This document shows, piece after piece, positions 1-58,472 of a DNA stretch of 58,472 nt. Positions within the stretch are counted from its first letter, which is position 1. Each line of letters opens with the position of its first letter. The DNA is from Acidobacteriota bacterium. GTDB lineage: Bacteria > Acidobacteriota > Vicinamibacteria > Vicinamibacterales > JAFNAJ01. The position numbers were made by a program, and so were the translations under genes. Under the pieces are notes generated by a model. The model was not told the origin of the DNA. It made no database searches and saw only the letters and a program-made list of their open reading frames with translations. The stretch covers positions 78,379 through 136,850 of the forward strand of contig JAHDVP010000009.1 in NCBI GenBank assembly GCA_023384575.1. The letters are read 5' to 3'.

Positions 1-447
1 GACGGTGGAGTTCAGCGGGGCGGAGTCGACGGACCCGGATGGCGACGCGCTGACGCATGCGTGGACGTTCTCGGACGGGCCGACGGCGAGCGGGGTGACG
101 ACGGCGCGGACGTTCGCGGCAGCGGGCAGCGTGACGGTGACGCTGACGGTGGACGACGGACGCGGCGGGACGGCGACGGCCAGCGTGGTGGTGACGGTGA
201 CGGCGCCGACGAACCAGGCGCCGACGGCGGTGATTGCAGCGTCGGCGACGACGGTGTCGGCGGGGTCGACGGTGGAGTTCAGCGGGGCGGAGTCGACGGA
301 CCCGGATGGCGACGCGCTGACGTATGCGTGGACGTTCTCGGACGGGCCGACGGCGAGCGGGGTGACGACGGCGCGGACGTTCGCGGCAGCGGGCAGCGTG
401 ACGGTGACGCTGACGGTCGATGACGGGCGCGGCGGGACGGCGACCGA
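1..447 (+). repeat. Tandem near-identical PKD-encoding repeat, period 267 bp
   Basis: Bases 1-150 and 268-417 are identical except for one C/T difference at base 56. The unit is 89 codons. The array probably continues upstream of the window. The neighbouring third PKD domain has diverged, so the first two are recently duplicated or homogenised by gene conversion. Confidence 0.9.
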
Positions 448-11631: not shown

Positions 11632-14600
11632 ATGCGCGCGATCACGATGCACTCGAAGACGACGACGATCGGCCCGATCGTCCAGCGCTCCTGGCTCGCC
11701 CGGGCCCTCGCGGCCGCCGCCGTCGTCATGACCTTCCTCGTCGCGCCGGCCTGGTCGTCGGCCCAGGTCACGGCCGGCGCCCCGGGGCGCTTCCTGGATC
11801 GCGAGGACATCCGGCTCTACGGGCTCGGCCTCGTGGTCGAGCCGGCGCGGCAGACTGTGCCGCGCGACATCGCGACGATCGTCCAGACGTACCTCGCCGC
11901 GCCGGGCACGCCCACGGATCTGCCGCCGTTTGCCGCCGACGCCGAGGTCCGCGCGACGCTGCGCGGGCCGAGCTTCGCGCGGCCGGTGGAGCTGCGCGTC
12001 CGGCCCAACGCGCCCTTCGACATCCCGGCGATGACGGTGGCCGGCCTGCACAGCCTCGACAACATCCGCCTCGTGTCGGGAGGTGAGGTGCTGCTCTACG
12101 GCGCGCCGGAGAGCGTCGAGATCGAGGTGATCGACCGCCTGCTCGTCACCGAGGTGCGGGCCCGTCCGCTCACGGCCGACGAGATCCGCGAGCGCGGCAT
12201 CGTCTTCGACCGGTCGAACTTCCAGGCCTACAATTTCACGGCGGCCTTCGCGCTGGCCGACGGCGCGCAGATCAATCTCAACTTCCCCGTCCTGCTGCCG
12301 GCGCTGGCCGGTGCGTCGGACGTGACGGCGCCGACGAGCGGGCTCGATCAGCTCCAGGCGACACCGCAGCTGCCGAGCCTCGCCACGATCATTCCCGACA
12401 CGCTGCGCATCCAGACGCAGGTGCCGAACCTCAGCGTCGTCGGCTTCACGCTGCGTGTGCCTCAGCTCCAGGGCCAGAACCTGGCGGTCCCGCCCATTCC
12501 CGGCGTCATCGTCATTCCGGGCGACATCGGGTTCCTGAACCAGTACTTCAGCGTGCTGCTGCTCGTGTCGAACGTCGCGCCCGACGGGTCGAACCTCGTC
12601 GTGAGCGACCTCACCGCGACGATCGTCCTGCCGACCGGCGACGACTCGGTGGTGGGCTCGCCCGACGATCCGCTGCGCATGGCGCAGACCGCGACGGGCG
12701 AGTCGCCGCGCGTGCAGCTCGTCGCGCGGCCCGGCCCCGACGGCCGGCTCGGCACGAGCGACGACATCCTCACCCTCGGCCCGGGCGAGACCAACAGCGC
12801 CGAGTTCCTCGTCGAGGGCCGCCGCGAGGGCAGCCACGTCGTCGAGATGGAGCTCGCCGGCACGCTCAACGGCCTGCCGGTCGGGCCCGTGCCGATTCGC
12901 GGGCGCGCGGCGGGAGCGGTGCTCGTCAGGAACCCCACGTTCACGCTCACCTTCACGCATCCCGACGTCGTGAACGCCGGCGAGCCGTACACGCTCGACG
13001 TGACCGTCACCAACACGTCGGCGTCACCGGCCAACTTCGTCAGCCTCAACCTGTATCCGCGCAACATTCTCGGCGCGACGCTCGCGGGCGAGCCCACGCA
13101 GGCCATCGACCAGATCCCGCCCGGCGATTCCGCCACCGTGTCGTTCGAGCTCGTGTCGATGCTGACCGGCAAGGTGACGGCCGGCACGCTGGCGGGCGAC
13201 GAGAACGTGAGCGGCCGGTTCCAGTTGAAGGCCGGCGTCGGCGAACTGGGCATCCCGCTCTCGCCCGACTCGCTCGTGCTACCCAAAGAGGCTGGCTCGC
13301 TGCCGAAGCCGTTGCGTGACGCCGCGCTCGGCCTGCTCGGGCGGGCCTACGCCGTGGCGACGGCACCGCCCGCGGCGCTCCCGGCGGGGGTCACCCGCTT
13401 CACGCGGAAGGTGGTCTACGACCGGGCCATCGAGGTGGCCGAGGCGGGCTTCCGCCACTTCCTCGGTGAGTCGCTGCCCGCGAGCGCCGCGCACCTGCTC
13501 TTCGAGTTCGCCGGCGGCAACTACCCGCGCCTCGGCGAACGCAGCCGCGATGCGGGCGAGCGCGAGTTCAACGAGCGCGACTACCGCGGCTTCGACGAGC
13601 TTCGCCGGCGTTCGTTCCGGGGCGATGTCTTCGCCTCGGCTGTCGGCGCGCTCCTCAGCCCGGAATGGCGCGACCTCGGGCCGGTCAACTTCCACCAGGC
13701 GCTGGCCGAGCGGGTGAGCTTCCGGCCGGGCCACGTGTCGGTGCTCGTGTCGGGGGCCGGGCCCCTGCCCTTCGAAATGGTGCTGCGCGATGCCGCGGGC
13801 CGGCGGCTCGGGGCATCGGGTGCCGACGGACGCCGCGTCAAGGACATTCCGTTCGCCGATCTCGTGCCCCTCGTCGACGAGAGCGGCGAGGCCACGGCGT
13901 ATCTGGCGCTCGTGACCGTGCCCGAGGGCGACTACGTGGTCGAGCTCCGTCGCCAGTCTGGCGCCGCCGACACCCCGTTCGGCGTGAGCGTCGTGCTGCC
14001 GCGCACCGACGGCACGCTGCGCCAGGTGGCGTTCGACGGTCTGACGGCCGACCGTCGTCCCGTGATCGCGCGGGAACCAGACGATGTCATTGGCGTGTCG
14101 TTCGAGGTGCTGAACGACGACGGGCCGGTCACGACGGCGCCAGCCGACCCGACCGTCGTGCGCGCCATCGTCGACCCCGCGCCGTCGGTTCTTGCCGCCG
14201 TGCAGATGCGCGATGCCGACGTCGTGGGCTGCGAGGACGCCGGCGGGGTCAGGCCCGGTCGCGTGATCGCGGTGCTCTTCAGCGAGGAGATCGATCCGAC
14301 CGAGGCCGAGGACAGGAAGACGCGGGGGCAGATCGCGAAGTACGCCGTCGAAGACAACGAGGTCGTCGGCGTGGCCCTGCAACCGGGCCGCCGCATCGCC
14401 TTCATCGGCGTGCGCGAGGGCATCGGCCCGTACGTCCCGCAGGCGCTCACCGTCAGCGACATCGGCGACCGCCGCGGGCAGCGGCTCTCGGCCCAGACGA
14501 TCGACGTCGACGTGCGGGTCGACGGCGCCGGCGGCGTCGTGAACGGCCGCGTGGTCGACGCCGAGGGCCGGCCCATCCCGTACGCCACGCTGCGCCTGCT

Positions 14601-17600
14601 CTACGAGTTCTCCTGCGGGCAGGAGACGGTCGTCGTCGGCATTGCCGAGAAGAGCGCGGACGCCGACGGACGGTACGCCTTCAACTACGTCAACGTCGGG
14701 CCGACGGCGAAGATCGTCGCCATCGACCCCGAGACCGGCGAGTTCCGCGCCGTGCGCTTCGGCGTGCAGCGCTCAGGGCAACGGCTCACGGTCGACGTCG
14801 TCATGATCGGCCGTGGCACGTTCGAGGGGCGGACGCTCTCGGAAGACGGTTTGCCGCTCGCGCGCACCAGCGTGCGCATCACGAGCCTGACCGACCAGAG
14901 CCAGTACGGCGCCACGACCGATGCCGACGGGCGGTTCAGGGTCGTTCGCATTCCGGTCGGCCCCGTCCTCGTCGAGGCGGTGAACACGACGCGCAACGCG
15001 CAGACGTTCGTCAACGAAGCCATCCCGACGGCCGGCGCCGTCATTCAGCGGGACCTCGTGCTGCTCGACGTCGCGCGGCCCGGGGCGATCACGATTCGGT
15101 ACGGCACGCTGCGGGGTACCGTCCTGCGCGCCGACGGCGTGACGCCGGTTGGCAACGTGCCCGTGTTCGCCTACTACCAGCACCTCAGCCAGCCTGGCGT
15201 CCGGTGCCCGGGTGCGTCGCCGCCGCCCGAATGTGCGGTGGCCGCCGCGCGGACCGACGGGGCTGGCTCGTACGTGTTTGACCGCGTTGTCGCGGGAGAC
15301 CTTCGCGTCGTGGTGTTCGACGAGGCCACGCTCCAACAGGGCACCGCGTCGACCGTGCTCGCGCCCGAGGCGACCGTCGACGTCAACGTGCTGCTCGCGG
15401 GCGGGCTCGGCACCGTGACGGGCGTGGTGCTCGACCCGGCTGGCGACCCGGTGCCCGGCGCGCGCATTGGCGGGGGCCTCGCCATCGTCGTGTCGGACGA
15501 GCTCGGCCGCTTCACGCTGCCCGACGTTCCGCTCGGCACACGGCAGATCGTCGCCGTGAGCGACGTGCTGCAGTCGCGCGGCTCGACCACCGTGTCGCTG
15601 GTGCGCGCCGGCGACACCGTCAACGCCACGATCGTCCTCGACTCGCTCGGCGCCATCGCTGGCCGGGTCTTCGGCACCGACGGCACGACGCCGCAGCCCG
15701 GCATCGTCGTCTACGCGCTCGCCCGCTGCGAGGGCTCGATCTGCGTCTACGGCCAGGCGACGACGAACGAGACCGGTGGGTACCGCATCGACGGGCTGCC
15801 GATGGGCGCCTACACCATTTCGGCCTTCAGGCGCGACTTCAGCGAGGGCAACTTCGCGCCGGTCACGCTGAGCTTCTTCCGCCAGGTGGCGCAGGGCCAT
15901 GTCGTGTTCCGCGGGCAGGGACGCGTGACCGGCCGCGTCGTCGACAGCAACGGCACGACCCCGCTCAAGGCGCTCGTCGGAGTGAGCGGCGATCAGCTCG
16001 CCATTGCCGGCGGCCGGATCGCCGTGAACTTCCAGCGGGTCGACAACTACCGCATCGTGGAGACCGACCTCGCCAACGGGCAGTTCGCGTTCAACGGCGT
16101 GTGGCAGGGAGCGTTCACGCTGCGGGCCGCCGGACAGTTCAGCCCCGATCCGATTGCCTTCGAGGGAACGATTCCATCGGCCGGCGCGACGACCGACGTC
16201 ACGCTGCGCCTGCAGGCGACGAGCGTCATCACCGGCACGGTGCTCACGCCAGCGGGGCTCGAGCCGGTGGGACCCGGCGTGTCGGTCCGGTACCGCTCGG
16301 CGGCGTTCAAGCTGGTCTGCTCGGAGACGTCCTCCGGCGAGTCGCAGTGCCAGGCCATCCCGCAGGGGATCCAGGACGCAGCCACCGTGACCGACGAGCG
16401 CGGCCAGTTCCTGTTTCCGCTCGTCAATGCCGGACCGTTTGTCCTCACCATCGACGACGGACAGGGGCGTGTCGCTGAGGTGCGTGGCTCGGTCGCGCCT
16501 GGCGAGACCGCCGCGGTCGAGGCGCGACTCGTGGGGCTCGGCGGCGCCGTCATCCGGGTGTTCGAGGCCAATCGTGCGCCAGACGGCAGCCCGATTCCGG
16601 TGCCCGGCGCGCGGGTGACGCTGCGCCAGATCGACGGCGCACGCCGCGCGTTCGAGAACCTCATCGCGCCGTCCTCGGGACCCGACACGGGCGTGATCCG
16701 CCTCCCGGCCGTGCTCGCGGAAGGGCAGTTCGTCGTGACGGCGACCGACCAGCGGAACGGCTTCGTGGGCCGCGCCGACGGCCGCGTCGCCGCCGAGGGC
16801 GACGAGCCCGTGGTCGACGTGTTCATCGCCAACGCCACCGGCACCGTCGAAGGTCGCGTGCTTCGGGCCGACGGCCTCACGCCGGTCGCCAACGCCGAGG
16901 TCGTCATCGGTCTCGGGCGGCCCGTGGCGTTCCTCCTGACCAACGCCGACGGCGAGTTCAGCGAGCCGGGCATACCGCTCGGCAGCTACACGATCGACGT
17001 CTTCGACGCGGCGACGGCCTCGCGAGGGTCGGCTGGTGGCCGACTCGACTTGAACGGCCAGGTGAGCTCGTCCGACATCACGCTCTCGGCACTCGCCGTC
17101 GTGCGCGGACGCGTGCTCGAGGCCGGCAGCGGCCTGCCGCTGCGCGGCTGGACCGTGCACCTCTCGCAGACGCTCCCATCGGGGCGAAGCGCGCCGTCGC
17201 TGATGACGATGAGCGGCCTCGATGGCAGCTTCTCGTTCCCCGGCGCGACGCTCGGCGCATTCACCGTGCGCGCCACCCGCGCCGGCGTCGTCGGCAGCGG
17301 CCAGGGGACCGGCCTCATCCAGCGCCCCGGCCAGGTCGTCGACGTACCGGTCGTCGTGGCCATCGACCGGCCGGCCACGGCCACGCTGGCCGGCGTGGTC
17401 CGGCAGGCGAACGGCGCCCCCGCGGCGAGTGCGGCGCTCGTGATCGACGGGCCGTCGGGACGCCGCGAGTTGACGGCAGGCGACGACGGGACGTTCCTGC
17501 TGCCCGACCTGCGCCTCGGCCGCTACACCGTCGTGGCCACGGCGCAGGCCAGCGCCGACACCGGTGCGACGTTCGCCGACCTGACGTTCAACGGTCAGGC

Positions 17601-20600
17601 GACCGGCGTCGTCGTCGTGCTCGGTGGGCTCGGGCGCGTGTTCGGTCAGGTGGTCGACACCGCCGGCGCCCCGGTGCCGTTTGCGCGCGTCGAGCTCGTC
17701 GGTCAGCCCGCGTCGGGCTGCGGGCCGTCGTGTCTCGGCGCCGCGGATGCCCAGGGGCTCTTCGAGTTCAACGCGGTGGCGGCGAAGACGTTCACCGTGA
17801 CGGCCTCGGCGCCCGACGGCCTCGTGCGCGGCGCCGTCGGCGACGTCCTCACGGCCGGCGGTCAGCGGCAGGTCGCGATCGTGCTCGAGCCATCGGCATC
17901 GGTGACGGGCACCGTCCACTTCGCCAACGGCGAGCCCGCACCGAACATCACCGCGGAGCTCGCGGGCAACGGCCGCCGGCTGTTCGTCGCCACCGGCGAC
18001 GACGGCCGCTTCGTCTTCCCCGTGGTGTCGCTGGTTGGCAGCCGCAACTACGCGCTTGAGCTGACCGACCCGATCGGTCCGGGCCTCGCCCGCCGGAACT
18101 TCACGGTCAACGCATCGCTCGATCTCGGCGTTGTCGTGCTCGACGAGGCCGACCCGGCAGTCGTCTCGACGACGCCGACCAACGGGGCGACCGGCGTGGC
18201 GCGAGACGCGCTGGTGCGCATCGAGTTCTCCGAGCCCATCGACCTCACGACCGCGACGACGACCAACGTCCGTCTGTTCAACGAGACCACTGAGGTCGCC
18301 GGAATCCTCACGCCGAGCGACGGGAATCGTGTGCTGACCTTCCGGCCGCTCGACGAGCTCGCCGACCAGACGCGGTACGGTCTCGAGGTGTCGGGCGTGC
18401 GCGACCTGCTCGGCAAGTCGATGCGCGCGGCCTTCACGGCGACCTTCACGACGGTCGACGTCACTCCGCCGTCGAAGCTCGAAATCACGCCTCCGCCGGG
18501 GTCGACGGGCGTGACCGTCTACACGCCGGTGCGCGTCAAGTACTCCGAGCCGATCGATCCCGAGCGGTTCGTCGACGCACCCATCGTCGTCACGACCGGG
18601 GGCCAGCCGGTGGAGGGGCGTACGGACTACCTCTTCGGCAACACCGTGGTCGTCTTCTCTCCGAGCCGTCCGCTTGCCGAGAACGCCGTCTACCAGGTGA
18701 GCGTGCTGCCGGCGACCGACTTCGCCGGCCAGGCCGAGAGCGCGCCGCTCGCGTTCGCCTTTTCGACGACCGACCGGACGCCCCCCGCGGTTGCTGCGCT
18801 TCGCTCGCTCGACGGCGAAACGGTCATCGAGAACACCGTGGCGCGTGTCGTCGCCGACGTGGCCGACGCCGACGTCGCGTTCGTGGACTTTTTCGTGAAC
18901 GGCCAGCTCGTGGGCGTGTCGCGGAGCCTGCCCTTCACGCTCAACTTCCAGGCTTCCTCGCAGTTCGGGCGTCCCGGCGACGTGCTGCAGGTCACGGGCG
19001 TCGCCACCGACACGTCGGGCAACCGCGGGCCGGCGAGCGCCGCCCTGCAGTTCGGCATCGTCGCCGACGAACCGCCGGCCGTGGCCACGACTGCTCCCGC
19101 AGCGGGTTCGAGCTTCCTGAACGGGGCCCGGGTGAACGTCGCGGTGCAGGCCACCGACGACGTCGGCGTAGCCGAGATCGCCTATCGAGTCCGGACCGGG
19201 CAGACGACGATCGCGCTCGGGACGCGGCCGCTGGCGAACCCTGCGGCGGCAGCGACCGAGACGTTCGGCTTCGACATGCCGACGGGGCTCGCGCCGGGGA
19301 CGCTGCTCTCGATCGAATCGTCGGCCCGCGACACGGCCGGCCGCGTCGTCGAGGCGACGCCCGTCGCCATCACCGTGCAGGACGGGGTGCCGCCGACCGT
19401 GGAGATCGCCAACCCAGCGTCGGGACAGATCGTGCAGCCAGGCCAGGACGTGAACGTCGTCGTGAGCGCGGCAGATGCCGGCGGCATCGCCGAGATCGGC
19501 TTTGCGTCCACCGGGATCGTGGTGGCCAGCGACGTGCGGACCATTGCGCCGGCGCAGCCGGCGGTGGCGACGTCCTTCAGCATCCGCATCCCGCCGGGCG
19601 CGCTGCCGAACGAGCGGGCGACGCTGACGGCGTACGCCGTCGACGCAGCCGGCAACCGGCGCGACGCCGGGGCCATCACGCTGGTCGTGGCCGACAACGC
19701 CGCGCCCGTCGTGACGCTCACGCCCGAGAGCGGCAGGCTCGAGATGACGCCGGGACGTCCGGTGCGGGTCGTGGCGTCGGCGACCGACGAGAGCGGCATC
19801 ACCCGGATCACGCTCACCGGCACCGGCGCCTTCGCCGTCAGCCGGACGGCGTCGATCGAGCCGCCGCTCGCGACCGCGACCACCACGTTCGAGATCGCGG
19901 TGCCAGACACGGTCGTCGACGGCCAGACGCTCCGGCTCGAGGCGCGCGCGACCGACCTGGCCAGCAACACGAGCGTTCCCGCCGTCGTGACGCTCACCGC
20001 GGTGCGGCTCGCCGACGTGACGCTGCCGCCGTCGGCCATCGTCGACGCGGGGCGCAGCCTCGCTGTCGAGCTCACCCTGGCGACCCCCGCTCCCGCGGGC
20101 GGTCTCCGGGTGACGCTCGGCATGGCGAACGCCACCGTGGCGAGCGTCGTGCCCTTCGTCGATTTCGCCGAGGGCGAGGTGGTGACGACGTTCGCCGTCA
20201 CGGGGGTGTCGAGCGGGACGACCGCGCTCTCCGCCTCCATCAGCGGCATCGAGAGAGCCTCGATGACCGTGACCGTCGACGGAGGCATCGTGCGTGGCCG
20301 CGTGGTCGACGACACGTTCGTGCCGGTTGCCGGTGTCGAGGTGACAGTGACATCGGTCGGCCAGGCGCAAACGACCACGACCGACGGCGACGGCGAGTAC
20401 GAAGCGCGAGGATTGCCCGGACCCGGCGTGGTCGTTCGAGCGCTCGACGTCGAGTCGGGCCGGCTCGGTTATGCGACCGGCACGATGAACCGCGCCAACG
20501 GGTTCGTCGACCTGCCGGACGTGATCCTCATCGAGGCCGGCAGCTTCGTCGGCACCGTCGTCGCCGCCGACGGCACGACCCCGGCGGGGCCGGGCGTGCA

Positions 20601-23600
20601 GGTGGACCTGTACCGCAGCCTGAACGGCAACCGCGGCGACTTCGTCGCGACGACCTTCACCGAGGCCGACTCGTCGTTCGCCTTCCGGCTGATCTCCGTC
20701 GGCGAGTACCAGATCGAGGCTCGCGACAACACGACGGGCGAGCGCGGGCGTATCACGGCCACCATCGTGCAGACGGGGGCCGAGGTGCAGGTCGCCGTGC
20801 CGTACCTCGGGCGGGGCACGGTCAGGGTGACCGTTCGCAACGCCGACGGCACGGCGATCGTCCAGAACGCCACCGTCACGCTCGCGAGCTCGAGCATCTT
20901 CGGCAGCGCTCCGGCGCGGACGGCCAGCAGTGGCCAGAGCGGGGTCGTCTCGTTCGACAACGTGCACGTGGGCACGTTCAGCGCGAGCGCCACCGATCCC
21001 GTCTCGCAGACGTCGGGTATCGCCTCGGGGGTGGTGACCGCGCACGGCGAGACCGTGGACGTCGAGGTGCGCCTCGCGGCCGTCGGCACGATCGCGGGGG
21101 TCGTGCTCCGGGCCGATGGAAGCCGGGTCGGACCGAACGTGCCGGTGAGCCTGCAGTTCACGTCGCGGTCGACGTTCACCGACGCCAACGGCGAGTTCCT
21201 GTTCGAGTACGTGCCGCTTGGCACCTACACGGTCCGTTCGAGCGAGGCCGCCACGCGCGGCCAGGGCAGCGCGACGGCCACGCTGACGACCTCCGTGCGT
21301 CTCGCCAGCGTGACCGTGCAGTTCCTCCCGCAGGGCGTGCTGCGGGTGACGGTCGTCGATGCCAATGGGCTGGCGGTCGAAGTGGCCGCGGTCAGTGCGT
21401 CGGTCTCGACGGCCAGCGGGGCGAGCGACCAGTTGTCGGGCACGACGGGCACCGGCGGCCTCGTCGTGCTCTCGAACCTGCTCTCGGGCACCGTCAACGT
21501 GACCGCGGCGCGCAGCGGCCTCACCGGCACGGCGAGCACGACGCTGCCGGCAGGCGGCGACGTCGCCGTCACTGTGCAGCTGCAGCCGGTCGCTGCCGTC
21601 GCGGGACAGGTGTTCCTGCCAAACGGCGAGAGCCCGGCGACCTCGGGGACGGTGCACGTGCGCTATCGCTTCAGCAGCGGCGTTCTGCGGACCCTCACGC
21701 TCAGCGAGGAGAACGGCGGCACGTTCCTCGCCGAGGGTCTGCCGCTCGCGGCGTACGACCTGTTCGCCTACGACGCGCAGGGGCGCCTGCGGGCGGTTCT
21801 GCGCAACGTGCAGCTCACCGAGAACGGGCAGGTGGCCGGCGTGTCGATGACCTTCGTCGGTCTCGGCACGGTGTCGGGTCTCGTGACGAATCCGAACGGG
21901 TCGAGCGCGTCCGGTCTCACGGTGACCGTCCAGGCCCTCGCTCCGGAGGTGGGGCGCAGCTTCTCGGCCGTGACGAACGCAGGCGGCATCTACACGGTCT
22001 CCGGCGTGCCGGTGGGGAGCGTGCTGGCAACGACCGGGAATCCGTCCCTGGAACTGCTGGGCGAAGCGACCGCGGTACTGGCCGGCGACGGCCAGACGCT
22101 CACGCTCAACATCGCGCTCCAGTCGAGCGCGGTGGCCCTGCCGCTCAGCCAGCCGCTGCGCGACGCCTACGCGCAGGACTTCTGGCTGCGGCGTGACGGA
22201 TCGCTCCTCGGCGGCGGCTACTACGGCGTCTTCAGTGACGGCGCGATGCTGCTCGACATCGTGCGTGATGGCGCGACGGAGCGCTTCGCCGGCGCCGCCA
22301 TCGGCCAGTACGAGGACGGCCGGCGCGAGGTGAGCGTGCGCCAGGACAACGTGCGCGGGCTTAACGTGACGCGCAAGCTGTTCGTCCCATCCACCGGCTA
22401 CTTCGGCCGCTACCTCGAGATCCTCTCGAACCCGGGGGCAGACCCGGTGACCGTCGACGTGCGCGTCACGGCCAACGTGCGCGCCGCGTGGCCGACGTCG
22501 GTCGCCGTGCAGGGGACGTCGAGCGGAGATGCCATCTTCGCGGCCGGCGACCGCTGGGTGGTCGTCGACGACGGCGTCGATGCCGACCCGTATTACCAGT
22601 CGACCCAGCCGCCCGTCGCCTTCGTCGTCGATGGCGACGGAGCGGGCGTTGCGGTGGGTCAGGCCGGGATCGCTGCCGGAGCGTCGGGCACCGGCATCGT
22701 GACCTACGAGTGGCGTCAGGTCGCCGTTCCGGCGTTCGGCCGCGTGGCCCTCATGCACTTCGTGTCGATGCAGACGAGCCGCGCGGCCGCCATTGCGACC
22801 GGCGAGCGGCTGGCGCAGCTGCCGCCTGAGGCGATGGTCGGGCTGAGCCCGGTCGAGGTGCAGGAGATCGCCAACTTCGTCGTCCCGCCGGATCTTCTGG
22901 GCGCTGTGGAGCCGCTCCCACCGCTCGACGGTCGCGTCACGGTGTCGGTCGTCGAGGGCGACGGCACGACGCCGGTTCCCGGCAGCACCTCGCTGCGGTT
23001 CCGCAGCTCCGTGCCGGTCTTCTCCCGCGAGTTCTCGACATCGGCCGGCAACGGCACCGGAACGGTGCAGCCGGGTACAGGGATCCCGGTTCCCCTCGCG
23101 CCGCTCGCCGTCACGGCGACGCACCCCCAGAGCGGCGTCGTTGCCGGACCGGTGACGGTCGCCCTGTCGACGACCACGCCTGTGGCCAGCACGACCATGG
23201 CGTTTACGGGAACAGCGATGGTCGAGGTGCGACTGCGGCGTCTCGACGGCTCGATCGTGCCAGGCGGCCAGTTGACGTCCGCCTTCGCGACCCTCGAGAA
23301 GGACGGCTACTCGCGCGGCAGCAACGCCGACAGCCTGGGCGTGGCCCGCTTCTTCGGCGTGCCCGTCGGCGACGGTGTCGTCGCGATGAGGGCGACCGCC
23401 AACCACGTCCAGGGCACCGCGATCCAGATGATGGGTCTGACGGCCACCTTCGTGGCCGGCCAACTGAACTCGACCGAGATCACCTTCACCGGGGGCACCG
23501 TCACCGGGCGCGTGCTGCTCTCGAGCGGCGAGCCCGCTGCGGGTCGCGCTCTCCGCATCGCCGACAGCACGTCGAGCTTCCCATTGTTCCAGCGCAACAC

Positions 23601-26600
23601 GACGACCGATGCCAACGGGGTCTTCCTCACGACCGACGTGCCTGCCGGCACCTACTATCTCCGGATCACGCACCCGAGCGGCGCGCAGTACCACGTCCCG
23701 CAGGCGATCTCGGTGAGCGCGGGGCAGACCGTCGTGGCCGACCAGGTGCTGCCCGCTTACGGGTCGATTCGCGTCACCGTCCGTCGGACCAACGGCGAGC
23801 TGGTGTCGGGCACCGCCTACCTGCGAAACGCGGCCGGCACTCAGTTGGCCAGCTTCTCCATTCCGACGACGGGAACGACGGCGGGTCAGGTGACGTTCAC
23901 GCAGGTCGTGAGCGGCAACTACTCGATCGAGGTCCGGCCTCTCAACCAGGTGACGTTGAGCGTCACCTACGGGGCCACCGTGTCGATCGACGGACAGGTC
24001 GTCGATGTGGCGGCGACGGCGCCGCCGTTTGGCAGCGTCACGGGCACCATTCGGACGCCAGGCGGCCAGCTGATGACGAACTGGTGCGGAGCACAACTCC
24101 TGCGGGACGGGATCCTCTTCGCCACTGCGTGCACCGACAGCCAGGGTCGCTACACCATCAACGGCCTGCCGTCCGGCGCGCCGCTCCGGCTGAATGTCGG
24201 CTACTACTACTATTACGACTCGAGGGTCATCCGATCGTTCGACGCGGGGCCCATTGCCGCGGACGGCGAGACGGTCACGCTCGACGGCATCCGTCCCGCC
24301 GCGGCGACGGTCCGCGTCACGGCGCAGGACCAGGCCGGCGTGCCCGTCAGAGTTCGTATCGAGGTCACCGACCTCTGGCGCAACTGGACCTACATCGGCG
24401 AGACCAGCGCCACGACCGGCCAACTCGACATCACCAACGTGCCGGAAGGGCCCTACTCGCTGCGCGCGAGGGACGCCAGCACGTTCGCTGAGCTCACCAC
24501 CGTCACGGGCACCATCGTGAGCGAGAACGACAACGCGGTGGTGTCGCAGACGGTCGTCATCCTCGGCCGTCTCACGGGGACCGTGACCGGGCGCGTGCTC
24601 GACGTCCGCGGCACCGGCGTGCCTGCGTCGGAGGCGCTCGTTCGCATCCTGACGCCGGAGGGCGTCGTCCTCATCAGCAACGTGACGGTCGGCAGCGACG
24701 GCAGCTACTCGGCGCCCGGCATCTCGGTGGTCGGCGGCGCATTCAAGGTCGAGGCGCGATGGCGGCGCGACGAGACGCGTCTCGTCGAGGCCGCGGGCAC
24801 GTTCACCGCGAGCGGCCAGACCGTCGACCTGCCGATCGTGCTGCCGATCGTGTACGGCAGGCTCGAGGGATTCGTCAGGTTCAGCGACGGAGAGCCGCTG
24901 CAGTCGTACATCGAGGTCTATGGCGGGCCGCCGTCCTATCCCTCCCTGGCGTGGGGGCAGACCGAGGTCGACGGCAGCTTCTCGTTCACGCCACGCTGGC
25001 TGCCGTATCCCTCGGTGGAGGTGACGGCGTGGAACTGGGAAACGGAATGGGCGGACACCCGCGAGGCCACGTTCGTGGACGACGTCGCGCGTGTGGAGTT
25101 CATCGTCGAGGGGCGGCTCGTGTCGGTTTCGGGCCGCGTCGTGGCCGCTGACGGGACCACACCCGTGGGGTCGGCCGATGTCGAGCTCACCGACGACGCC
25201 TCTGGCACCACGAGATGGGGCGGGAGCCAATGGAACGATGGCACGTTCGACTTCGGGCCCACGCTGGTCACCGGCGACAGCATCACCCTTCGGGCGACGT
25301 CGTGGCGGCTGGATTACATCGAAGCGATCGAGCTGGTGACGCTCGCGCCGGACGAGACCTCGCGGTACGTCGAGATCCGGCTACCCGTCTCGGTTCTCAA
25401 GGGCGCCGTCTACCTGGACGACACGAGGACGACACGAGCGAACGACGGCGTGAGCGTGTTTGCCACGCATTCCAGCGAGGGCTGGACGCAGTCGGGCGAG
25501 TTCCTCGCGGAGAGCGGCGAGTACTTCTTCCTCGGCCTGCCGCCGGCGACCTACAGCATCGTCGTGCAGACCAACAGCGGGCTGACGGCGACCGCGCACG
25601 AAGTGCTGATTGAAGCCGACCAGTTGGTCGTGGAGGAAGACATCGTGCTGCCGCCGTCGAACGACCTCCTCCTCACGGTGACCGCCGGTGGTGTGCCCGT
25701 GGCGGATGCCCGGGTGCTCGTGGCGGTGTCGAACGCCGAGGGCGCCAGCGTCGAGTTCTGGGAATTCGCCAACGAAAACGGCCAGTTCCTGTTCCCGCTG
25801 TTGCCGCTTGGCCCGGTCTTCGTGCAGGCCGCCGACTACGGCCAGGGGCGTTACGCGTCGGCCTGGGTCAACTTGCCGACGCGCGACGAGGCCTCGCCGC
25901 TCTCAGTCACGCTCGACTTCCAGGCCGACCTCGGAACGGTGACCGGCCGCGTCTACGACGTCGCGGGCAACCCGGCGAGCGCGTCGGTCACCGTGCAGGC
26001 GTCAAACGGACACGGCCCGCTCGGTGGGTTCTACACCACGGTGTCGACGACGAGCGTCGGCGGGGTGCCCGGCTACTTCACCGTCACGAACGTGCCGGCT
26101 GGTGGGGTGGCTGTGACCGCGACGAACAACTCGCTCGTCCAGACCGGCAGCACGTTTACCACGGTGACGGCGTCGACGACGAGCAGCGTCGAGGTTCGAA
26201 TGCAGACGGGACGGTGGCTCTCGACCGACCTCGAGGTGGGCGACGGCTTCTACTACGGTGTTGGCTCCACCTATGCCGAGGTGAGGAGCAGTGCCTACTA
26301 CGACGACCAGGTCAGCCTGCGGTCGCCCGTCAGCACTGCACTCCGCCTTCGCGTCGACGACGACGTGCCGTGCTGCACATCCATCATGGCGCACGACCCG
26401 CTCGTGGAGACCGGACGCGGGTTCGTGGTCGGGCCCATGCGGACGGGGCGCGGCCTCTTCATGACCCGGAAGATCTTCGTCGCGGGCGGTACCGACGCGC
26501 CTGGCCAGCGGTTCCTCCGCTACCTCGACCTCGTCAGCAATCCGTTCGAGACCGACGTCGAGGTGACGGTCACACTGGCGAGCTATCCGTCGGTGTTCTC

Positions 26601-26928
26601 GTGGTCTACGCTCTACGAGGCCCCCGACTTCCAGTGGCTCGCCGGGATCCCGACCAACACGTTGACGGTGGGTCTCGGCATCGTCAATTTCAATGGGTCG
26701 GGGCTGCTGCCGTTCCAGGCCACCTTCTACGAGCAGCGCTTCCGGGTGGTCATCCCGGCCGGCGGATCGGTCGGGTTCCTCCGGTTCCTCGAGCTCGGAC
26801 CTCGCGTCGCGGGCGCGGCAGACGTGCTCAGGGACAGGATTCTCGACCTTCGAGACTTGAACTACGACGCACTGGCCGGCTTCAGCGAGGCCGAAAGGCG
26901 TTCGATCGTGAACTTCCGGGTGCCGTAG
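11632..26928 (+). CDS. Giant secreted protein of carboxypeptidase-regulatory-like repeats
   Basis: This encodes 5,098 residues. The N-terminus (basic start, hydrophobic ALAAAAVVMTFLVAP, then WSSAQV) is a Sec signal peptide cleaved near residue 45, which supports the ATG; a GAAGGG-like ribosome site lies just before the upstream stop. Order: an N-terminal region of about 600 residues including a DUF11-like stretch; a long run of CarboxypepD_reg-like repeats with the GxVxGxVxDxxGxPVxGAxV...DxxGxFxxxxVPxG pattern (about 14.5-18.1 kb); two Big_5-like domains (18.16-18.77 kb); several Ig-like repeats (to 20.0 kb); more carboxypeptidase-regulatory repeats; a distinct module at 22.14-22.89 kb; further repeats; and a second divergent copy of that module at the C-terminus (26.21-26.92 kb). 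No protease, glycosidase or anchor motif was seen. It is likely an extracellular structural or binding protein; its role is not known. Confidence 0.88.
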   Translation: MRAITMHSKTTTIGPIVQRSWLARALAAAAVVMTFLVAPAWSSAQVTAGAPGRFLDREDIRLYGLGLVVEPARQTVPRDIATIVQTYLAAPGTPTDLPPFAADAEVRATLRGPSFARPVELRVRPNAPFDIPAMTVAGLHSLDNIRLVSGGEVLLYGAPESVEIEVIDRLLVTEVRARPLTADEIRERGIVFDRSNFQAYNFTAAFALADGAQINLNFPVLLPALAGASDVTAPTSGLDQLQATPQLPSLATIIPDTLRIQTQVPNLSVVGFTLRVPQLQGQNLAVPPIPGVIVIPGDIGFLNQYFSVLLLVSNVAPDGSNLVVSDLTATIVLPTGDDSVVGSPDDPLRMAQTATGESPRVQLVARPGPDGRLGTSDDILTLGPGETNSAEFLVEGRREGSHVVEMELAGTLNGLPVGPVPIRGRAAGAVLVRNPTFTLTFTHPDVVNAGEPYTLDVTVTNTSASPANFVSLNLYPRNILGATLAGEPTQAIDQIPPGDSATVSFELVSMLTGKVTAGTLAGDENVSGRFQLKAGVGELGIPLSPDSLVLPKEAGSLPKPLRDAALGLLGRAYAVATAPPAALPAGVTRFTRKVVYDRAIEVAEAGFRHFLGESLPASAAHLLFEFAGGNYPRLGERSRDAGEREFNERDYRGFDELRRRSFRGDVFASAVGALLSPEWRDLGPVNFHQALAERVSFRPGHVSVLVSGAGPLPFEMVLRDAAGRRLGASGADGRRVKDIPFADLVPLVDESGEATAYLALVTVPEGDYVVELRRQSGAADTPFGVSVVLPRTDGTLRQVAFDGLTADRRPVIAREPDDVIGVSFEVLNDDGPVTTAPADPTVVRAIVDPAPSVLAAVQMRDADVVGCEDAGGVRPGRVIAVLFSEEIDPTEAEDRKTRGQIAKYAVEDNEVVGVALQPGRRIAFIGVREGIGPYVPQALTVSDIGDRRGQRLSAQTIDVDVRVDGAGGVVNGRVVDAEGRPIPYATLRLLYEFSCGQETVVVGIAEKSADADGRYAFNYVNVGPTAKIVAIDPETGEFRAVRFGVQRSGQRLTVDVVMIGRGTFEGRTLSEDGLPLARTSVRITSLTDQSQYGATTDADGRFRVVRIPVGPVLVEAVNTTRNAQTFVNEAIPTAGAVIQRDLVLLDVARPGAITIRYGTLRGTVLRADGVTPVGNVPVFAYYQHLSQPGVRCPGASPPPECAVAAARTDGAGSYVFDRVVAGDLRVVVFDEATLQQGTASTVLAPEATVDVNVLLAGGLGTVTGVVLDPAGDPVPGARIGGGLAIVVSDELGRFTLPDVPLGTRQIVAVSDVLQSRGSTTVSLVRAGDTVNATIVLDSLGAIAGRVFGTDGTTPQPGIVVYALARCEGSICVYGQATTNETGGYRIDGLPMGAYTISAFRRDFSEGNFAPVTLSFFRQVAQGHVVFRGQGRVTGRVVDSNGTTPLKALVGVSGDQLAIAGGRIAVNFQRVDNYRIVETDLANGQFAFNGVWQGAFTLRAAGQFSPDPIAFEGTIPSAGATTDVTLRLQATSVITGTVLTPAGLEPVGPGVSVRYRSAAFKLVCSETSSGESQCQAIPQGIQDAATVTDERGQFLFPLVNAGPFVLTIDDGQGRVAEVRGSVAPGETAAVEARLVGLGGAVIRVFEANRAPDGSPIPVPGARVTLRQIDGARRAFENLIAPSSGPDTGVIRLPAVLAEGQFVVTATDQRNGFVGRADGRVAAEGDEPVVDVFIANATGTVEGRVLRADGLTPVANAEVVIGLGRPVAFLLTNADGEFSEPGIPLGSYTIDVFDAATASRGSAGGRLDLNGQVSSSDITLSALAVVRGRVLEAGSGLPLRGWTVHLSQTLPSGRSAPSLMTMSGLDGSFSFPGATLGAFTVRATRAGVVGSGQGTGLIQRPGQVVDVPVVVAIDRPATATLAGVVRQANGAPAASAALVIDGPSGRRELTAGDDGTFLLPDLRLGRYTVVATAQASADTGATFADLTFNGQATGVVVVLGGLGRVFGQVVDTAGAPVPFARVELVGQPASGCGPSCLGAADAQGLFEFNAVAAKTFTVTASAPDGLVRGAVGDVLTAGGQRQVAIVLEPSASVTGTVHFANGEPAPNITAELAGNGRRLFVATGDDGRFVFPVVSLVGSRNYALELTDPIGPGLARRNFTVNASLDLGVVVLDEADPAVVSTTPTNGATGVARDALVRIEFSEPIDLTTATTTNVRLFNETTEVAGILTPSDGNRVLTFRPLDELADQTRYGLEVSGVRDLLGKSMRAAFTATFTTVDVTPPSKLEITPPPGSTGVTVYTPVRVKYSEPIDPERFVDAPIVVTTGGQPVEGRTDYLFGNTVVVFSPSRPLAENAVYQVSVLPATDFAGQAESAPLAFAFSTTDRTPPAVAALRSLDGETVIENTVARVVADVADADVAFVDFFVNGQLVGVSRSLPFTLNFQASSQFGRPGDVLQVTGVATDTSGNRGPASAALQFGIVADEPPAVATTAPAAGSSFLNGARVNVAVQATDDVGVAEIAYRVRTGQTTIALGTRPLANPAAAATETFGFDMPTGLAPGTLLSIESSARDTAGRVVEATPVAITVQDGVPPTVEIANPASGQIVQPGQDVNVVVSAADAGGIAEIGFASTGIVVASDVRTIAPAQPAVATSFSIRIPPGALPNERATLTAYAVDAAGNRRDAGAITLVVADNAAPVVTLTPESGRLEMTPGRPVRVVASATDESGITRITLTGTGAFAVSRTASIEPPLATATTTFEIAVPDTVVDGQTLRLEARATDLASNTSVPAVVTLTAVRLADVTLPPSAIVDAGRSLAVELTLATPAPAGGLRVTLGMANATVASVVPFVDFAEGEVVTTFAVTGVSSGTTALSASISGIERASMTVTVDGGIVRGRVVDDTFVPVAGVEVTVTSVGQAQTTTTDGDGEYEARGLPGPGVVVRALDVESGRLGYATGTMNRANGFVDLPDVILIEAGSFVGTVVAADGTTPAGPGVQVDLYRSLNGNRGDFVATTFTEADSSFAFRLISVGEYQIEARDNTTGERGRITATIVQTGAEVQVAVPYLGRGTVRVTVRNADGTAIVQNATVTLASSSIFGSAPARTASSGQSGVVSFDNVHVGTFSASATDPVSQTSGIASGVVTAHGETVDVEVRLAAVGTIAGVVLRADGSRVGPNVPVSLQFTSRSTFTDANGEFLFEYVPLGTYTVRSSEAATRGQGSATATLTTSVRLASVTVQFLPQGVLRVTVVDANGLAVEVAAVSASVSTASGASDQLSGTTGTGGLVVLSNLLSGTVNVTAARSGLTGTASTTLPAGGDVAVTVQLQPVAAVAGQVFLPNGESPATSGTVHVRYRFSSGVLRTLTLSEENGGTFLAEGLPLAAYDLFAYDAQGRLRAVLRNVQLTENGQVAGVSMTFVGLGTVSGLVTNPNGSSASGLTVTVQALAPEVGRSFSAVTNAGGIYTVSGVPVGSVLATTGNPSLELLGEATAVLAGDGQTLTLNIALQSSAVALPLSQPLRDAYAQDFWLRRDGSLLGGGYYGVFSDGAMLLDIVRDGATERFAGAAIGQYEDGRREVSVRQDNVRGLNVTRKLFVPSTGYFGRYLEILSNPGADPVTVDVRVTANVRAAWPTSVAVQGTSSGDAIFAAGDRWVVVDDGVDADPYYQSTQPPVAFVVDGDGAGVAVGQAGIAAGASGTGIVTYEWRQVAVPAFGRVALMHFVSMQTSRAAAIATGERLAQLPPEAMVGLSPVEVQEIANFVVPPDLLGAVEPLPPLDGRVTVSVVEGDGTTPVPGSTSLRFRSSVPVFSREFSTSAGNGTGTVQPGTGIPVPLAPLAVTATHPQSGVVAGPVTVALSTTTPVASTTMAFTGTAMVEVRLRRLDGSIVPGGQLTSAFATLEKDGYSRGSNADSLGVARFFGVPVGDGVVAMRATANHVQGTAIQMMGLTATFVAGQLNSTEITFTGGTVTGRVLLSSGEPAAGRALRIADSTSSFPLFQRNTTTDANGVFLTTDVPAGTYYLRITHPSGAQYHVPQAISVSAGQTVVADQVLPAYGSIRVTVRRTNGELVSGTAYLRNAAGTQLASFSIPTTGTTAGQVTFTQVVSGNYSIEVRPLNQVTLSVTYGATVSIDGQVVDVAATAPPFGSVTGTIRTPGGQLMTNWCGAQLLRDGILFATACTDSQGRYTINGLPSGAPLRLNVGYYYYYDSRVIRSFDAGPIAADGETVTLDGIRPAAATVRVTAQDQAGVPVRVRIEVTDLWRNWTYIGETSATTGQLDITNVPEGPYSLRARDASTFAELTTVTGTIVSENDNAVVSQTVVILGRLTGTVTGRVLDVRGTGVPASEALVRILTPEGVVLISNVTVGSDGSYSAPGISVVGGAFKVEARWRRDETRLVEAAGTFTASGQTVDLPIVLPIVYGRLEGFVRFSDGEPLQSYIEVYGGPPSYPSLAWGQTEVDGSFSFTPRWLPYPSVEVTAWNWETEWADTREATFVDDVARVEFIVEGRLVSVSGRVVAADGTTPVGSADVELTDDASGTTRWGGSQWNDGTFDFGPTLVTGDSITLRATSWRLDYIEAIELVTLAPDETSRYVEIRLPVSVLKGAVYLDDTRTTRANDGVSVFATHSSEGWTQSGEFLAESGEYFFLGLPPATYSIVVQTNSGLTATAHEVLIEADQLVVEEDIVLPPSNDLLLTVTAGGVPVADARVLVAVSNAEGASVEFWEFANENGQFLFPLLPLGPVFVQAADYGQGRYASAWVNLPTRDEASPLSVTLDFQADLGTVTGRVYDVAGNPASASVTVQASNGHGPLGGFYTTVSTTSVGGVPGYFTVTNVPAGGVAVTATNNSLVQTGSTFTTVTASTTSSVEVRMQTGRWLSTDLEVGDGFYYGVGSTYAEVRSSAYYDDQVSLRSPVSTALRLRVDDDVPCCTSIMAHDPLVETGRGFVVGPMRTGRGLFMTRKIFVAGGTDAPGQRFLRYLDLVSNPFETDVEVTVTLASYPSVFSWSTLYEAPDFQWLAGIPTNTLTVGLGIVNFNGSGLLPFQATFYEQRFRVVIPAGGSVGFLRFLELGPRVAGAADVLRDRILDLRDLNYDALAGFSEAERRSIVNFRVP

Positions 26929-55533: not shown

Positions 55534-55671
55534 GGTTCTCACGTGTGTCGATGCTGCCAATCCCGGTTCCGACGACCGGACCGCCCTTGGTCTCCTGAGC
55601 CTTCTCTGGCGGTCAGGTGTTTGGTGTCGGTCGTCTCGGACAGATTGGCCTCCTCAACACGCGTGAGAAGC
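55534..55671. repeat. MITE-like palindromic element, family B, short copy
   Basis: Terminal arms at 55535-55562 and 55643-55670 are 28-base imperfect inverted repeats (22 of 28 pair). Inside are GACGACCGGACCGCC and GGCGGTCAGG...GTCGGTCGTC, which can pair in part. The unit is shared with 41901-42106. It ends about 17 bases before a TACAAT promoter box. The remaining bases 55443-55533 show no feature. Confidence 0.78.
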
Positions 55672-55687
55672 CCTCGGGACCCGCTGT

Positions 55688-55693
55688 TACAAT
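55688..55693 (+). promoter_or_regulatory. -10 box TACAAT upstream of the GNAT/nitrilase gene
   Basis: TACAAT in TGTTACAATCGGG lies about 107 bases upstream of the GTG. The -35 position falls on the end of the family B repeat, which may contribute to the promoter. Confidence 0.45.
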
Positions 55694-55799
55694 CGGGGCA
55701 CTGCCCGCGCCGGCCGGCGCGCCGCCGCGTGGGCCGCCGGGCTCCCGCCGATTCCGGGCTGCCCTGGCCGCCGCGCGTCTGGCACCCCAGGAGGATAGT

Positions 55800-57335
55800 G
55801 TGTCCGATCTCTCCGATCTCGAGAAGGAACTCGTCATCCGACCGCTCCGCATGGAGGACTACGACCAGCTCGTCGACATGCAGCACCGCTGCTTCCCGAC
55901 CATGCGGCCGTGGAGCCGCGAGCAGGTGGCCAGCCAGCTCCGGGTCTTTCCCGAAGGGCAGCTGTGCGTCGAGTATGGCGGCAAGGTGGTGGCCTCGTCG
56001 AGCAGCCTCATTCTCGACTTCGGCATGTACGACGGCCACCACACGTGGGCGGAGGTGACCGACTCGGGCATGATCAGGAACCACAATCCCGAGGGCAACA
56101 CGCTGTACGGGATCGAGGTGATGGTCGACCCCGACTACCGCGGCATGAAGCTCGCGCGGCGGCTCTACGACGCGCGCAAGGACCTGGTCCGTCAGCGGAA
56201 CCTGATGGCCATCGTCGTCGGCGGGCGCATCCCGGGGTACCACGCGCATGCGGCGAGCATGTCGGCGCGCGAATACGTCGAGAAGGTGCAGAACAAGACG
56301 CTCGTCGATCCCGTGCTGACGACGCAGATCGCCAACGGGTTCGTGCTGAAGCGATTGATCCAGAGCTACCTGCCGACCGACGAGGAGTCGCAGGGCTGGG
56401 CGACGTTTCTCGAGTGGAGCAACCTCGACTACCAGCCCGACCCGAACCGGCGGCTCGTCGCCTCGCGCCGGGTGCGCATCTGCGCGGTGCAGTACCAGAT
56501 GCGCCGGGTGAGCAGCTTCGACGAGTTCGCGCGGCAGAGCGAGTACTTCGTCGACGTGGCGTCCGACTACAAGGCCGACTTCATCCTGTTTCCGGAACTT
56601 TTCACCACGCAGCTGCTCTCGTTTCTGAAGGCTGAACGGCCGGGGCTGGCCGTGCGCCGGCTGGCCGAGTTCACGCCGCAGTACCTCGAGCTCTTCTCGA
56701 AGCTCGCCCTGAAGCACGACATCAACATCGTCGGCGGGTCGCACTTCGCGGTGGAGGACGAGCGCCTCTACAACATCTCGTACCTGTTCCACCGCAACGG
56801 GGGCATCGACAAGCAGTACAAGCTGCACATCACCCCGAACGAGCGACGGTGGTGGGGCGTCGAGCCCGGCAACAAGCTCGAGGTGTTCGAGACCGACAAG
56901 GGCAAGGTGTCGATCCAGATCTGCTACGACATCGAGTTCCCGGAGCTGGGACGGCTGGCGGCCGAGCAGGGGGCGGAGATCTTCTTCGTGCCTTTCTGCA
57001 CGGACGAGCGGTACGGGTACCTGCGCGTGCGGTACTGCGCGCAGGCGCGCTGCATCGAGAACCACGTGTTCGTGGCGCTCGCGGGCAACGTGGGCAACCT
57101 GCCCGACGTCGACAACATGGACGTGCAGTACGCGCAGTCGGGCATCTTCACGCCGTCGGACATTCCGTTCAGCCGCGACGCGGTGGCGGCCGAGTGCACG
57201 CCGAACATCGAGACGGTCATCGTGGAGGACGTCGACCTCGAGCTGCTGAGGCGCCATCGGCAGACGGGCAACGTCCTGAACTGGAAGGACCGGCGGACGG
57301 ACCTGTACGAAGTGCGTCTGCGCGCGTCCGAGTAG
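55800..57335 (+). CDS. Bifunctional GNAT acetyltransferase / carbon-nitrogen hydrolase
   Basis: 511 residues from GTG 55800, with CCAGGAGGA five bases upstream; no closer in-frame ATG precedes the GNAT domain. Residues 10-210 are a GNAT fold ([17 protein letters not shown], then [20 protein letters not shown], the acetyl-CoA loop). Residues 225-500 are a nitrilase-superfamily amidase: [11 protein letters not shown], catalytic Glu266 in FPELF, Lys341 in YKLHITPNE, Cys375 in [10 protein letters not shown]. Both catalytic cores look intact. The fusion is seen in other bacteria; an amide cleaved by one domain and an amine acetylated by the other is plausible, but the substrate is unknown. It is expected to be cytoplasmic. 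Confidence 0.92.
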
Positions 57336-57344
57336 CCCCCTCTA

Positions 57345-57563
57345 CGCCTCGGCGTCTTTGCGGTAGCCCTCCTTCGCGTCTCTGCCTCCTCCGCGCCGGT
57401 GTTTCGCACCCCGACTCGAACTCGGACTTGACCGCTCGGATCGGGTCTACATCGCCTCGCGCGCGCCCGAGGGCATCCAGCCCGGGCCGGACCGGAGGGT
57501 GGTGGCGGGTGTCCGCACCGTCTTCTGAGAACGCGGAGGACGCGGAGGGCGCGGGGCACGGCT
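57345..57563. other. Repeat-like and remnant sequence upstream of family A copy 2
   Basis: Bases 57345-57400 look like an inverted, degenerate family A end (CGTCTTTGCGGT, CGCGTCTCTGCC). Bases 57421-57528 on the plus strand read as SDRVYIASRAPEGIQPGPDR and on to a TGA, which looks like the tail of a lost coding gene that I cannot identify. Bases 57529-57560 carry ACGCGGAGGACGCGGAGG. Confidence 0.4.
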
Positions 57564-57816
57564 ACCGCAGAGACGCAGAGACGCAGAGAGGCGCACGTAG
57601 CCAGGGGCCCGGTGGGCGCGACGAAGTCGCGCCGCGGGAGACGCGAGCCGTGGGCGCATGAACCGGCCCTCAGTGTGCCTCGGCCCCGGCGTCGGCTCAT
57701 GCGCCCACGGCTCGCGTCTCCCGCGCCTCGGCCGCTTCGCAGCCGATCACCGGGCCCTTCTCGGCTGACGCGAGAATCCCTCTCCCCGCTTCTTTGCGCC
57801 TTGGCGCCTCTGCGGT
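57564..57816. repeat. Cloverleaf-like dispersed element, family A, copy 2
   Basis: The left end (ACCGCAGAGACGCAGAGACG from 57564) and the right end (to GCCTCTGCGGT at 57816) are imperfect inverted repeats. GGGCCCGGTG (57605-57614) pairs with CACCGGGCCC (57748-57757). Between these are the hairpin GCGCGAC-GAA-GTCGCGC, a perfect 29-bp inverted repeat (57633-57661 and 57697-57725, 35-base loop), and TCGGC-CGCTTCGC-AGCCGA. Layout equals copy 1, but the central stem is unrelated. Confidence 0.8.
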
Positions 57817-57821
57817 GTCTC

Positions 57822-58472
57822 CTACCGCAGTGGCGCGGCCAGGGCCTGGCTGATGAAGTCGGCCTCTGGAAGCCCGCCGAGGATCTCGATGCCGTTGTCG
57901 CCCACGGTCTTCGGGACGCCGTTCACGCGATAGGCCCGAATCAGGTCGGGGTAGGTCGAGACCTCGACGGCGCTCGCCCGGATGAGCGGCTGTTCGATGG
58001 CCATGCGGTGTGCCAGGCTGACCGCCCGGGGGCAGTGCGGTCAGGTCGGGGTCGTGAAGACCTGCAGATGCAGCGGGCTCTCGACCGCGGCGAGCGCCTC
58101 GCGGCTCTCGGCCGACAGGCCGGAGTCGCCGTTCGAGACGAGCACGATCGAATCGAGCAGCGACGTGAACTCGTAGCCCACGGGCGCGCCGTAGAAGCGC
58201 ACCCCGAAATCGGTCAGCCCCCCATCGGTTTCGACGCGCAGGAGCGCGAGCCCGGGCGCTCGCTCGATGCCGAGGCCGGCGGCCTCCTCCCTGTCGAGCA
58301 CGAGGTTGTGCACGACGAGCGAGAGCCGCTCGTCGAGCGGGACCAGCTCGTCGAGCACGCGCTTGGCATCGTCACATGTCTCGCAGTCGAACGACTGGGT
58401 GAAGAACGCGATGCGGACGGGAGCGGTCATGCCGGCGAGGAACTCCCGGACCCGCGCGCGGTCGGTGTCGGA
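57822..58472 (-). CDS. Two-domain glutaredoxin-like protein disulfide oxidoreductase, probable selenoprotein (5' partial)
   Basis: The frame is open from the window's right edge (SDTDRARVREFLAGMTAPVR), so the start lies outside. The first thioredoxin fold has FTQSFDCETCDDAKRVLDEL (CETC at 58374-58385). The second reads LQVFTTPT-TGA-PHCPRAVSLAHRM and continues in the same frame to NGVPKTVGDNG and a normal stop. Relatives (archaeal PDO, AhpF N-terminal domain) have TPTCPxCP there, so the TGA at 58041-58043 replaces the first active-site Cys and is best read as selenocysteine (UPHC). A SECIS-like hairpin follows. The product would be a thiol-disulfide reductase with 216 or more residues. Alternatives are a Cys-to-stop mutation or a sequencing error. 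Standard gene calling would report two short genes. Confidence 0.82.
58013..58029 (-). promoter_or_regulatory. Candidate bacterial SECIS element
   Basis: Downstream of the UGA the mRNA can form CCGGGC-GGUCA-GCCUGG: six pairs (one G-U) closing a 5-base loop that begins GG. The loop starts 17 bases after the UGA. Bacterial SECIS elements need an upper stem of at least 4 pairs, a short loop with G in the first two positions and a UGA-loop distance of roughly 16-37 bases; E. coli fdhF has GGUC in the loop at nearly the same distance. Confidence 0.7.

What the first reader, a model, noticed from the sequence alone, without database searches (positions are those of the whole stretch)
57822..58472. 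In-frame TGA at the active-site Cys of a protein disulfide oxidoreductase: probable selenoprotein
Two apparent short minus-strand frames (58041-58430 and 57822-58004) are in the same frame with only sense codons between them. The TGA sits exactly where the family has the first Cys of the C-terminal CxxC, giving TPT-U-PHCP. Similarity continues on both sides to the expected C-terminus. The N-terminal CETC keeps ordinary cysteines, so only the catalytic C-terminal centre would be selenium based. Family alignment position is established knowledge; Sec insertion is inference.
Basis: partly seen in the sequence, partly recalled or inferred. Interest (0 to 1): 0.92.

Follow-up and report, generated by a model that had tools for sequence, protein, structure and literature searches.

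The report
Selenocysteine-containing protein disulfide oxidoreductase gene
A gene that looks broken by a stop codon in fact very probably encodes a two-domain redox protein with selenium at its main active site; the protein type was already listed as a selenoprotein, but here it proves to be the usual form across a whole class of bacteria.

Summary
On the minus strand one reading frame runs from the contig end (58472) to a TAG at 57822-57824, interrupted only by TGA at 58041-58043. That TGA sits exactly at the first Cys of the C-terminal CxxC of a protein disulfide oxidoreductase (TIGR02187, 228 bits, cut-off 185). It is not a pseudogene or read error: 99 of 112 genomes of the class that have the gene carry one TGA in it, and all 75 TGA genes read codon by codon have it at this codon. 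The genome has selA, selB, selD (itself with an in-frame TGA) and tRNA-Sec. 98 of 99 TGA genomes have selA or selB; 9 of 13 Cys-only genomes have neither. A hairpin 17 nt after the TGA fits the bacterial SECIS model; 64 of 75 Sec genes pass it against 16 expected after synonymous recoding, while Cys genes do not exceed chance. Sec insertion is very strongly supported, though not shown by protein data. The kind is known: reviews list TIGR02187 (UxxC) as a predicted selenoprotein, first reported in 2006. New here: class-wide prevalence, repeated Sec/Cys switching, coupled synonymous changes in the SECIS loop, and loss of the N-terminal CxxC in a third of Sec forms.

The parts
57822..58472 (-). 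Coding frame of a Sec-containing protein disulfide oxidoreductase (TIGR02187), 5' end cut by the contig end (about 4 codons missing), stop TAG at 57822-57824
58041..58043 (-). In-frame TGA read as selenocysteine, first position of the C-terminal UxxC (U-P-H-C)
58032..58043 (-). C-terminal redox centre UPHC (Sec plus resolving Cys)
   Evidence: alignment with CPYC of 1a8l and 1j08
58374..58385 (-). N-terminal redox centre CETC, ordinary cysteines
   Evidence: lost in 24 of 75 sampled Sec relatives
58013..58029 (-). SECIS-like hairpin CCGGGC-GGUCA-GCCUGG, apical loop starting 17 nt after the TGA
   Evidence: class-wide tests

Best explanation
The gene encodes a roughly 220-residue protein disulfide oxidoreductase of two thioredoxin folds. 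Its UGA at 58041-58043 is decoded as selenocysteine by SelB and tRNA-Sec, directed by the hairpin immediately downstream. Shown: the frame, the family, the exact position of the TGA, the machinery in the same genome, conservation of both TGA and downstream frame across the class, and RNA-level conservation of the hairpin. Inferred: the Sec selenolate is the attacking residue of the C-terminal centre, forms a selenenylsulfide with the Cys three residues on, and is re-reduced by NADPH-thioredoxin reductase (one clear TrxR gene is in the genome), passing electrons to peroxiredoxins or other disulfide substrates as archaeal PDOs do. The N-terminal CETC plays an accessory part (isomerase-type activity), which fits its repeated loss in relatives.
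For: TIGR02187 PDO_seleno_TRX 228.4 bits against cut-off 185, over 2-208 of 209 positions. PDB PDOs 1a8l and 1j08 at E about 1e-34, TGA opposite the first Cys of CPYC. selA 435 bits, tRNA-Sec 61.8 bits over a gathering score of 47 with the UCA anticodon in the alignment, selB over cut-off, selD 342 bits with its own TGA in the GAG-U-AGK motif. Class survey: 112 of 193 genomes have the gene, 99 with one TGA. Sec machinery: 98 of 99 TGA genomes have selA or selB, while 9 of 13 Cys-only genomes have neither. SECIS model of PMC13188914 (loop 3-9 nt, stem at least 4 bp, G in the first two loop positions, spacing 16-37 nt, energy at most -7.5) is met by the window (loop GGUCA, 6 bp, 17 nt, -10.1) and by 64 of 75 Sec genes against 16 expected under synonymous recoding; Cys genes 3 of 15 against 3.6 expected. 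Two synonymous wobble sites in the loop are coupled in Sec genes (GCG-GTC 60, GCC-GTG 12, mixed 1), with about 8 changes each on the tree going together in 5 of 5 independent pairs in which both differ; no such coupling in Cys genes. TrxR present. In S. solfataricus PDO the C-terminal site is the essential one for thiol-transferase activity (PMC7465337), and PDO relays NADPH/TrxR electrons to peroxiredoxin (PMC7278568).
Against: No protein or expression data. In the window gene alone the hairpin is not exceptional (z -0.66 against dinucleotide shuffles; 20% of synonymous recodings also pass); the RNA case rests on the class. The independent-pairs test for loop coupling has p 0.0625 because few pairs are informative. 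selB in this genome is split over contig ends. The 5' end of the gene is not on the contig. The partner proteins are not shown: neighbouring genes in relatives differ from genome to genome.
Confidence: 0.96

Rival explanations
1. Pseudogene or assembly/sequencing error: a real TGC or TGT codon was misread or recently mutated to TGA.
For: Gene lies at a contig end and a single substitution turns TGC or TGT into TGA.
Against: 99 genomes of the class carry one TGA in the gene, always at this codon in the 75 checked; the frame downstream is conserved with third-position differences in excess; hairpin conservation.
Confidence: 0.01
2. The TGA is a true stop: the gene makes a one-domain N-terminal protein, with the downstream part translated separately or as a read-through minority.
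For: TGA is an ordinary stop for other genes (many relatives of this very gene end in TGA); no proteomic data.
Against: A third of the TGA genes have lost the N-terminal CxxC, so a truncated product would have no redox centre; Cys homologues keep one uninterrupted frame; Sec machinery tracks TGA.
Confidence: 0.02
3. TGA is decoded as another amino acid (Trp or Cys) by suppression, not as Sec.
For: Frame openness alone does not tell which residue is inserted.
Against: Position is the catalytic Cys in all homologues; selA, selB, selD and tRNA-Sec are present; the SECIS-like hairpin is kept only in TGA genes; genes elsewhere in the class end in TGA normally.
Confidence: 0.01

Closest known systems
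Homolog of AhpF N-terminal domain / Grx-like domain protein, TIGR02187, UxxC selenoprotein (ABB15282.1; Carboxydothermus hydrogenoformans and Symbiobacterium thermophilum in PMC1794560; also PMC9312934 and PMC13188914)
   Same: Same family model, same UxxC motif, predicted by the same Cys/Sec logic.
   Different: Here in a different lineage (probably Acidobacteriota), widespread over a class instead of two genomes, with class-wide SECIS evidence and loss of the N-terminal CxxC in many relatives. I did not have the 2006 sequences to compare directly.
Archaeal protein disulfide oxidoreductase (P. furiosus 1a8l, P. horikoshii 1j08, S. solfataricus PDO)
   Same: Two thioredoxin folds, full-length alignment, CxxC in each fold, C-terminal centre aligned with the TGA.
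   Different: These have Cys at the position; described in a review as exclusive to thermophiles (PMC7465337).
AhpF N-terminal domain and AhpF-like fusions (TIGR03140, TIGR03143)
   Same: Related tandem thioredoxin folds.
   Different: Scores far below cut-off (57 against 503; 73 against 688); no flavin reductase part here.

Membership tests
TIGR02187 protein disulfide oxidoreductase (PDO) | Full-length match above curated cut-off | tested here: met
   228.4 bits against 185, positions 2-208 of 209
TIGR02187 protein disulfide oxidoreductase (PDO) | Two thioredoxin-type units with CxxC (or UxxC) in each | tested here: met
   CETC and UPHC in register with CQYC and CPYC of 1a8l; structure not predicted here
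TIGR02187 protein disulfide oxidoreductase (PDO) | Disulfide reductase/isomerase activity | not testable with these tools
   needs enzyme assay
Bacterial selenoprotein | In-frame TGA aligned with a conserved Cys, with Cys homologues | tested here: met
Bacterial selenoprotein | selA, selB, selC, selD in the genome | tested here: met
   selB split over contig ends
Bacterial selenoprotein | bSECIS hairpin after the UGA | tested here: met
   strong only as a class-wide signal
Bacterial selenoprotein | Sec detected in the protein | not testable with these tools
   needs mass spectrometry or 75Se labelling
AhpF | Match above the AhpF cut-off, flavin reductase domain | tested here: not met
   56.9 bits against 502.9

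The most novel reading that the evidence does not exclude
In this bacterial class, PDO has become a mainly selenium-based enzyme in which only the C-terminal Sec centre is essential: the N-terminal CxxC has been lost several times while Sec was kept, turning a two-centre PDO into a one-centre seleno-thioredoxin of mostly non-thermophilic bacteria, and Sec is swapped for Cys mainly when the Sec machinery is lost.
Probability: 0.55. Interest if true: 0.5.

Novelty: new member of a known kind. Interest (0 to 1): 0.42.

Why it matters
Standard gene callers cut this protein at the TGA and lose its main active site, so a redox enzyme found in most genomes of a large bacterial class is likely to be misannotated. 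The class offers about ten natural Sec/Cys changes in one enzyme, with and without the Sec machinery, which makes the question of why selenium is kept at a given redox centre directly testable. It also places PDOs, described in one review as exclusive to thermophiles (PMC7465337), widely in a class that probably consists mostly of mesophilic soil bacteria (the last point is inference).

Tried and rejected
Looking for an overlapping contig to recover the start codon found none. A gene-neighbour clue to the redox partner gave nothing: neighbours in relatives are an ABC exporter, an M61 peptidase or a GMP-synthase C-terminal-like gene, not conserved. My first SECIS scan broke ties wrongly and reported opened inner pairs as loops; it was replaced, and only its codon counts are used. 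A first motif search for the relatives missed most of them and was replaced by tblastn. Folding the whole 45 nt after the TGA gave varied minimum-energy folds, so the test was made on the model-defined hairpin. A mir-877 Rfam hit downstream is below gathering score and reflects a palindrome. The 7,480,314-base single-contig relative G186 matches my memory of Luteitalea pratensis, which the papers read did not confirm, so the class Vicinamibacteria is only a guess.

Full report
Observation. The minus strand of 57822-58472 is a single frame of 216 residues with one TGA at 58041-58043 and a TAG at its end. No other contig holds the same end.

Family. The joined protein matches TIGR02187 (PDO_seleno_TRX) at 228.4 bits, above the cut-off of 185, over nearly the full model, and AhpF models far below their cut-offs. 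It aligns end to end with the solved PDOs of Pyrococcus (1j08, 1a8l; E about 1e-34), with CETC opposite the N-terminal CQYC and the TGA opposite the first Cys of the C-terminal CPYC.

Sec machinery. The same genome holds selA, selB, split by contig ends, selD with an in-frame TGA in its GAG-U-AGK motif and tRNA-Sec at 61.8 bits. It also has a clear thioredoxin reductase.

Relatives. In 193 genomes of the class, 112 have the gene at E 1e-20 or better; 99 carry a copy with one TGA and none carries TAA or TAG in it. Reading the codon in 100 loci gave 75 TGA, 13 TGC and 12 TGT, always at the same position (ten of these loci, all Cys, are from the more distant genomes). Of the 99 TGA genomes 87 have selB by a strict search, and 11 of the other 12 have selA; the remaining one is 74% complete. 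Of 13 Cys-only genomes, 9 have neither. The tree needs about ten Sec/Cys changes, at least nine forced by well-supported branches; most in-class Cys genes sit inside Sec groups, which suggests loss of Sec, though the tree is not rooted with confidence.

RNA signal. Seventeen nucleotides after the TGA begins the loop of a hairpin CCGGGC-GGUCA-GCCUGG (58013-58029) that meets the published bSECIS constraints (PMC13188914). Taken alone it is unremarkable for such GC-rich sequence. Across the class it is not: 64 of 75 Sec genes pass the model against 16 expected when the same residues are recoded with the class's codon usage, while Cys genes pass 3 of 15 against 3.6 expected. Two synonymous wobble positions, the third bases of the Ala and Val codons that fall in the loop, are coupled in Sec genes as G with C (60) or C with G (12), with one exception, and uncoupled in Cys genes. 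Each site changed about eight times on the tree; of six independent pairs on well-supported branches, the two sites went together in five and the second did not differ in one (sign test p 0.0625, limited by the number of pairs). Protein constraint cannot cause this, since both changes are silent.

Mechanism. In S. solfataricus PDO the C-terminal centre carries thiol-transferase activity and both centres are needed for isomerase activity (PMC7465337); PDO takes electrons from NADPH-TrxR to peroxiredoxin (PMC7278568). I infer the same path here with a Sec selenolate as attacking group. In line with this, 24 of 75 sampled Sec genes have lost the N-terminal CxxC (for example SESG, DPES) but kept UxxC, with about seven changes of the N-terminal motif over the whole tree.

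Known or new. TIGR02187 with UxxC has been listed as a predicted selenoprotein family since 2006 (PMC1794560, two genomes; PMC9312934; PMC13188914). The window gene is a new member of that kind. What I did not find in the papers searched is its predominance in this class, the loop coupling, or the N-centre loss; that search covers open-licence papers only.

Noticed in passing
57618-57740: Long imperfect palindrome (48-nt arms, 85% complementary, 27-nt spacer) just downstream of the gene, within an intergenic stretch with further inverted repeats (57340-57378 with 57550-57588, 57564-57593 with 57787-57816). The palindrome occurs once in the genome.
   Followed up: partly
L020 (G000:C14:89153-90079): selD of this genome is itself a selenoprotein gene, with TGA in the GAG-U-AGK motif; a second selD-like gene without TGA lies on contig C50.
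   Followed up: partly
L031, L032: PDO homologues of two other Acidobacteriota have Cys in the C-terminal centre but no cysteines in the N-terminal one (LGYG, LEYG).
   Followed up: no
2-11629 and 11632-26928, + strand: Two very large adjacent frames (3875 and 5098 aa) with PKD, Ig-like and carboxypeptidase-regulatory domains in the parts scanned, probably giant surface or secreted proteins.
   Followed up: no
L079 and L085 (G085); L046 and L081 (G059); L121 and L122 (G144): Some relatives carry two PDO genes; in G085 and G059 one copy has TGA and the other Cys.
   Followed up: partly
55617-57335, + strand: Convergent neighbour: GNAT acetyltransferase fused to a carbon-nitrogen hydrolase.
   Followed up: no
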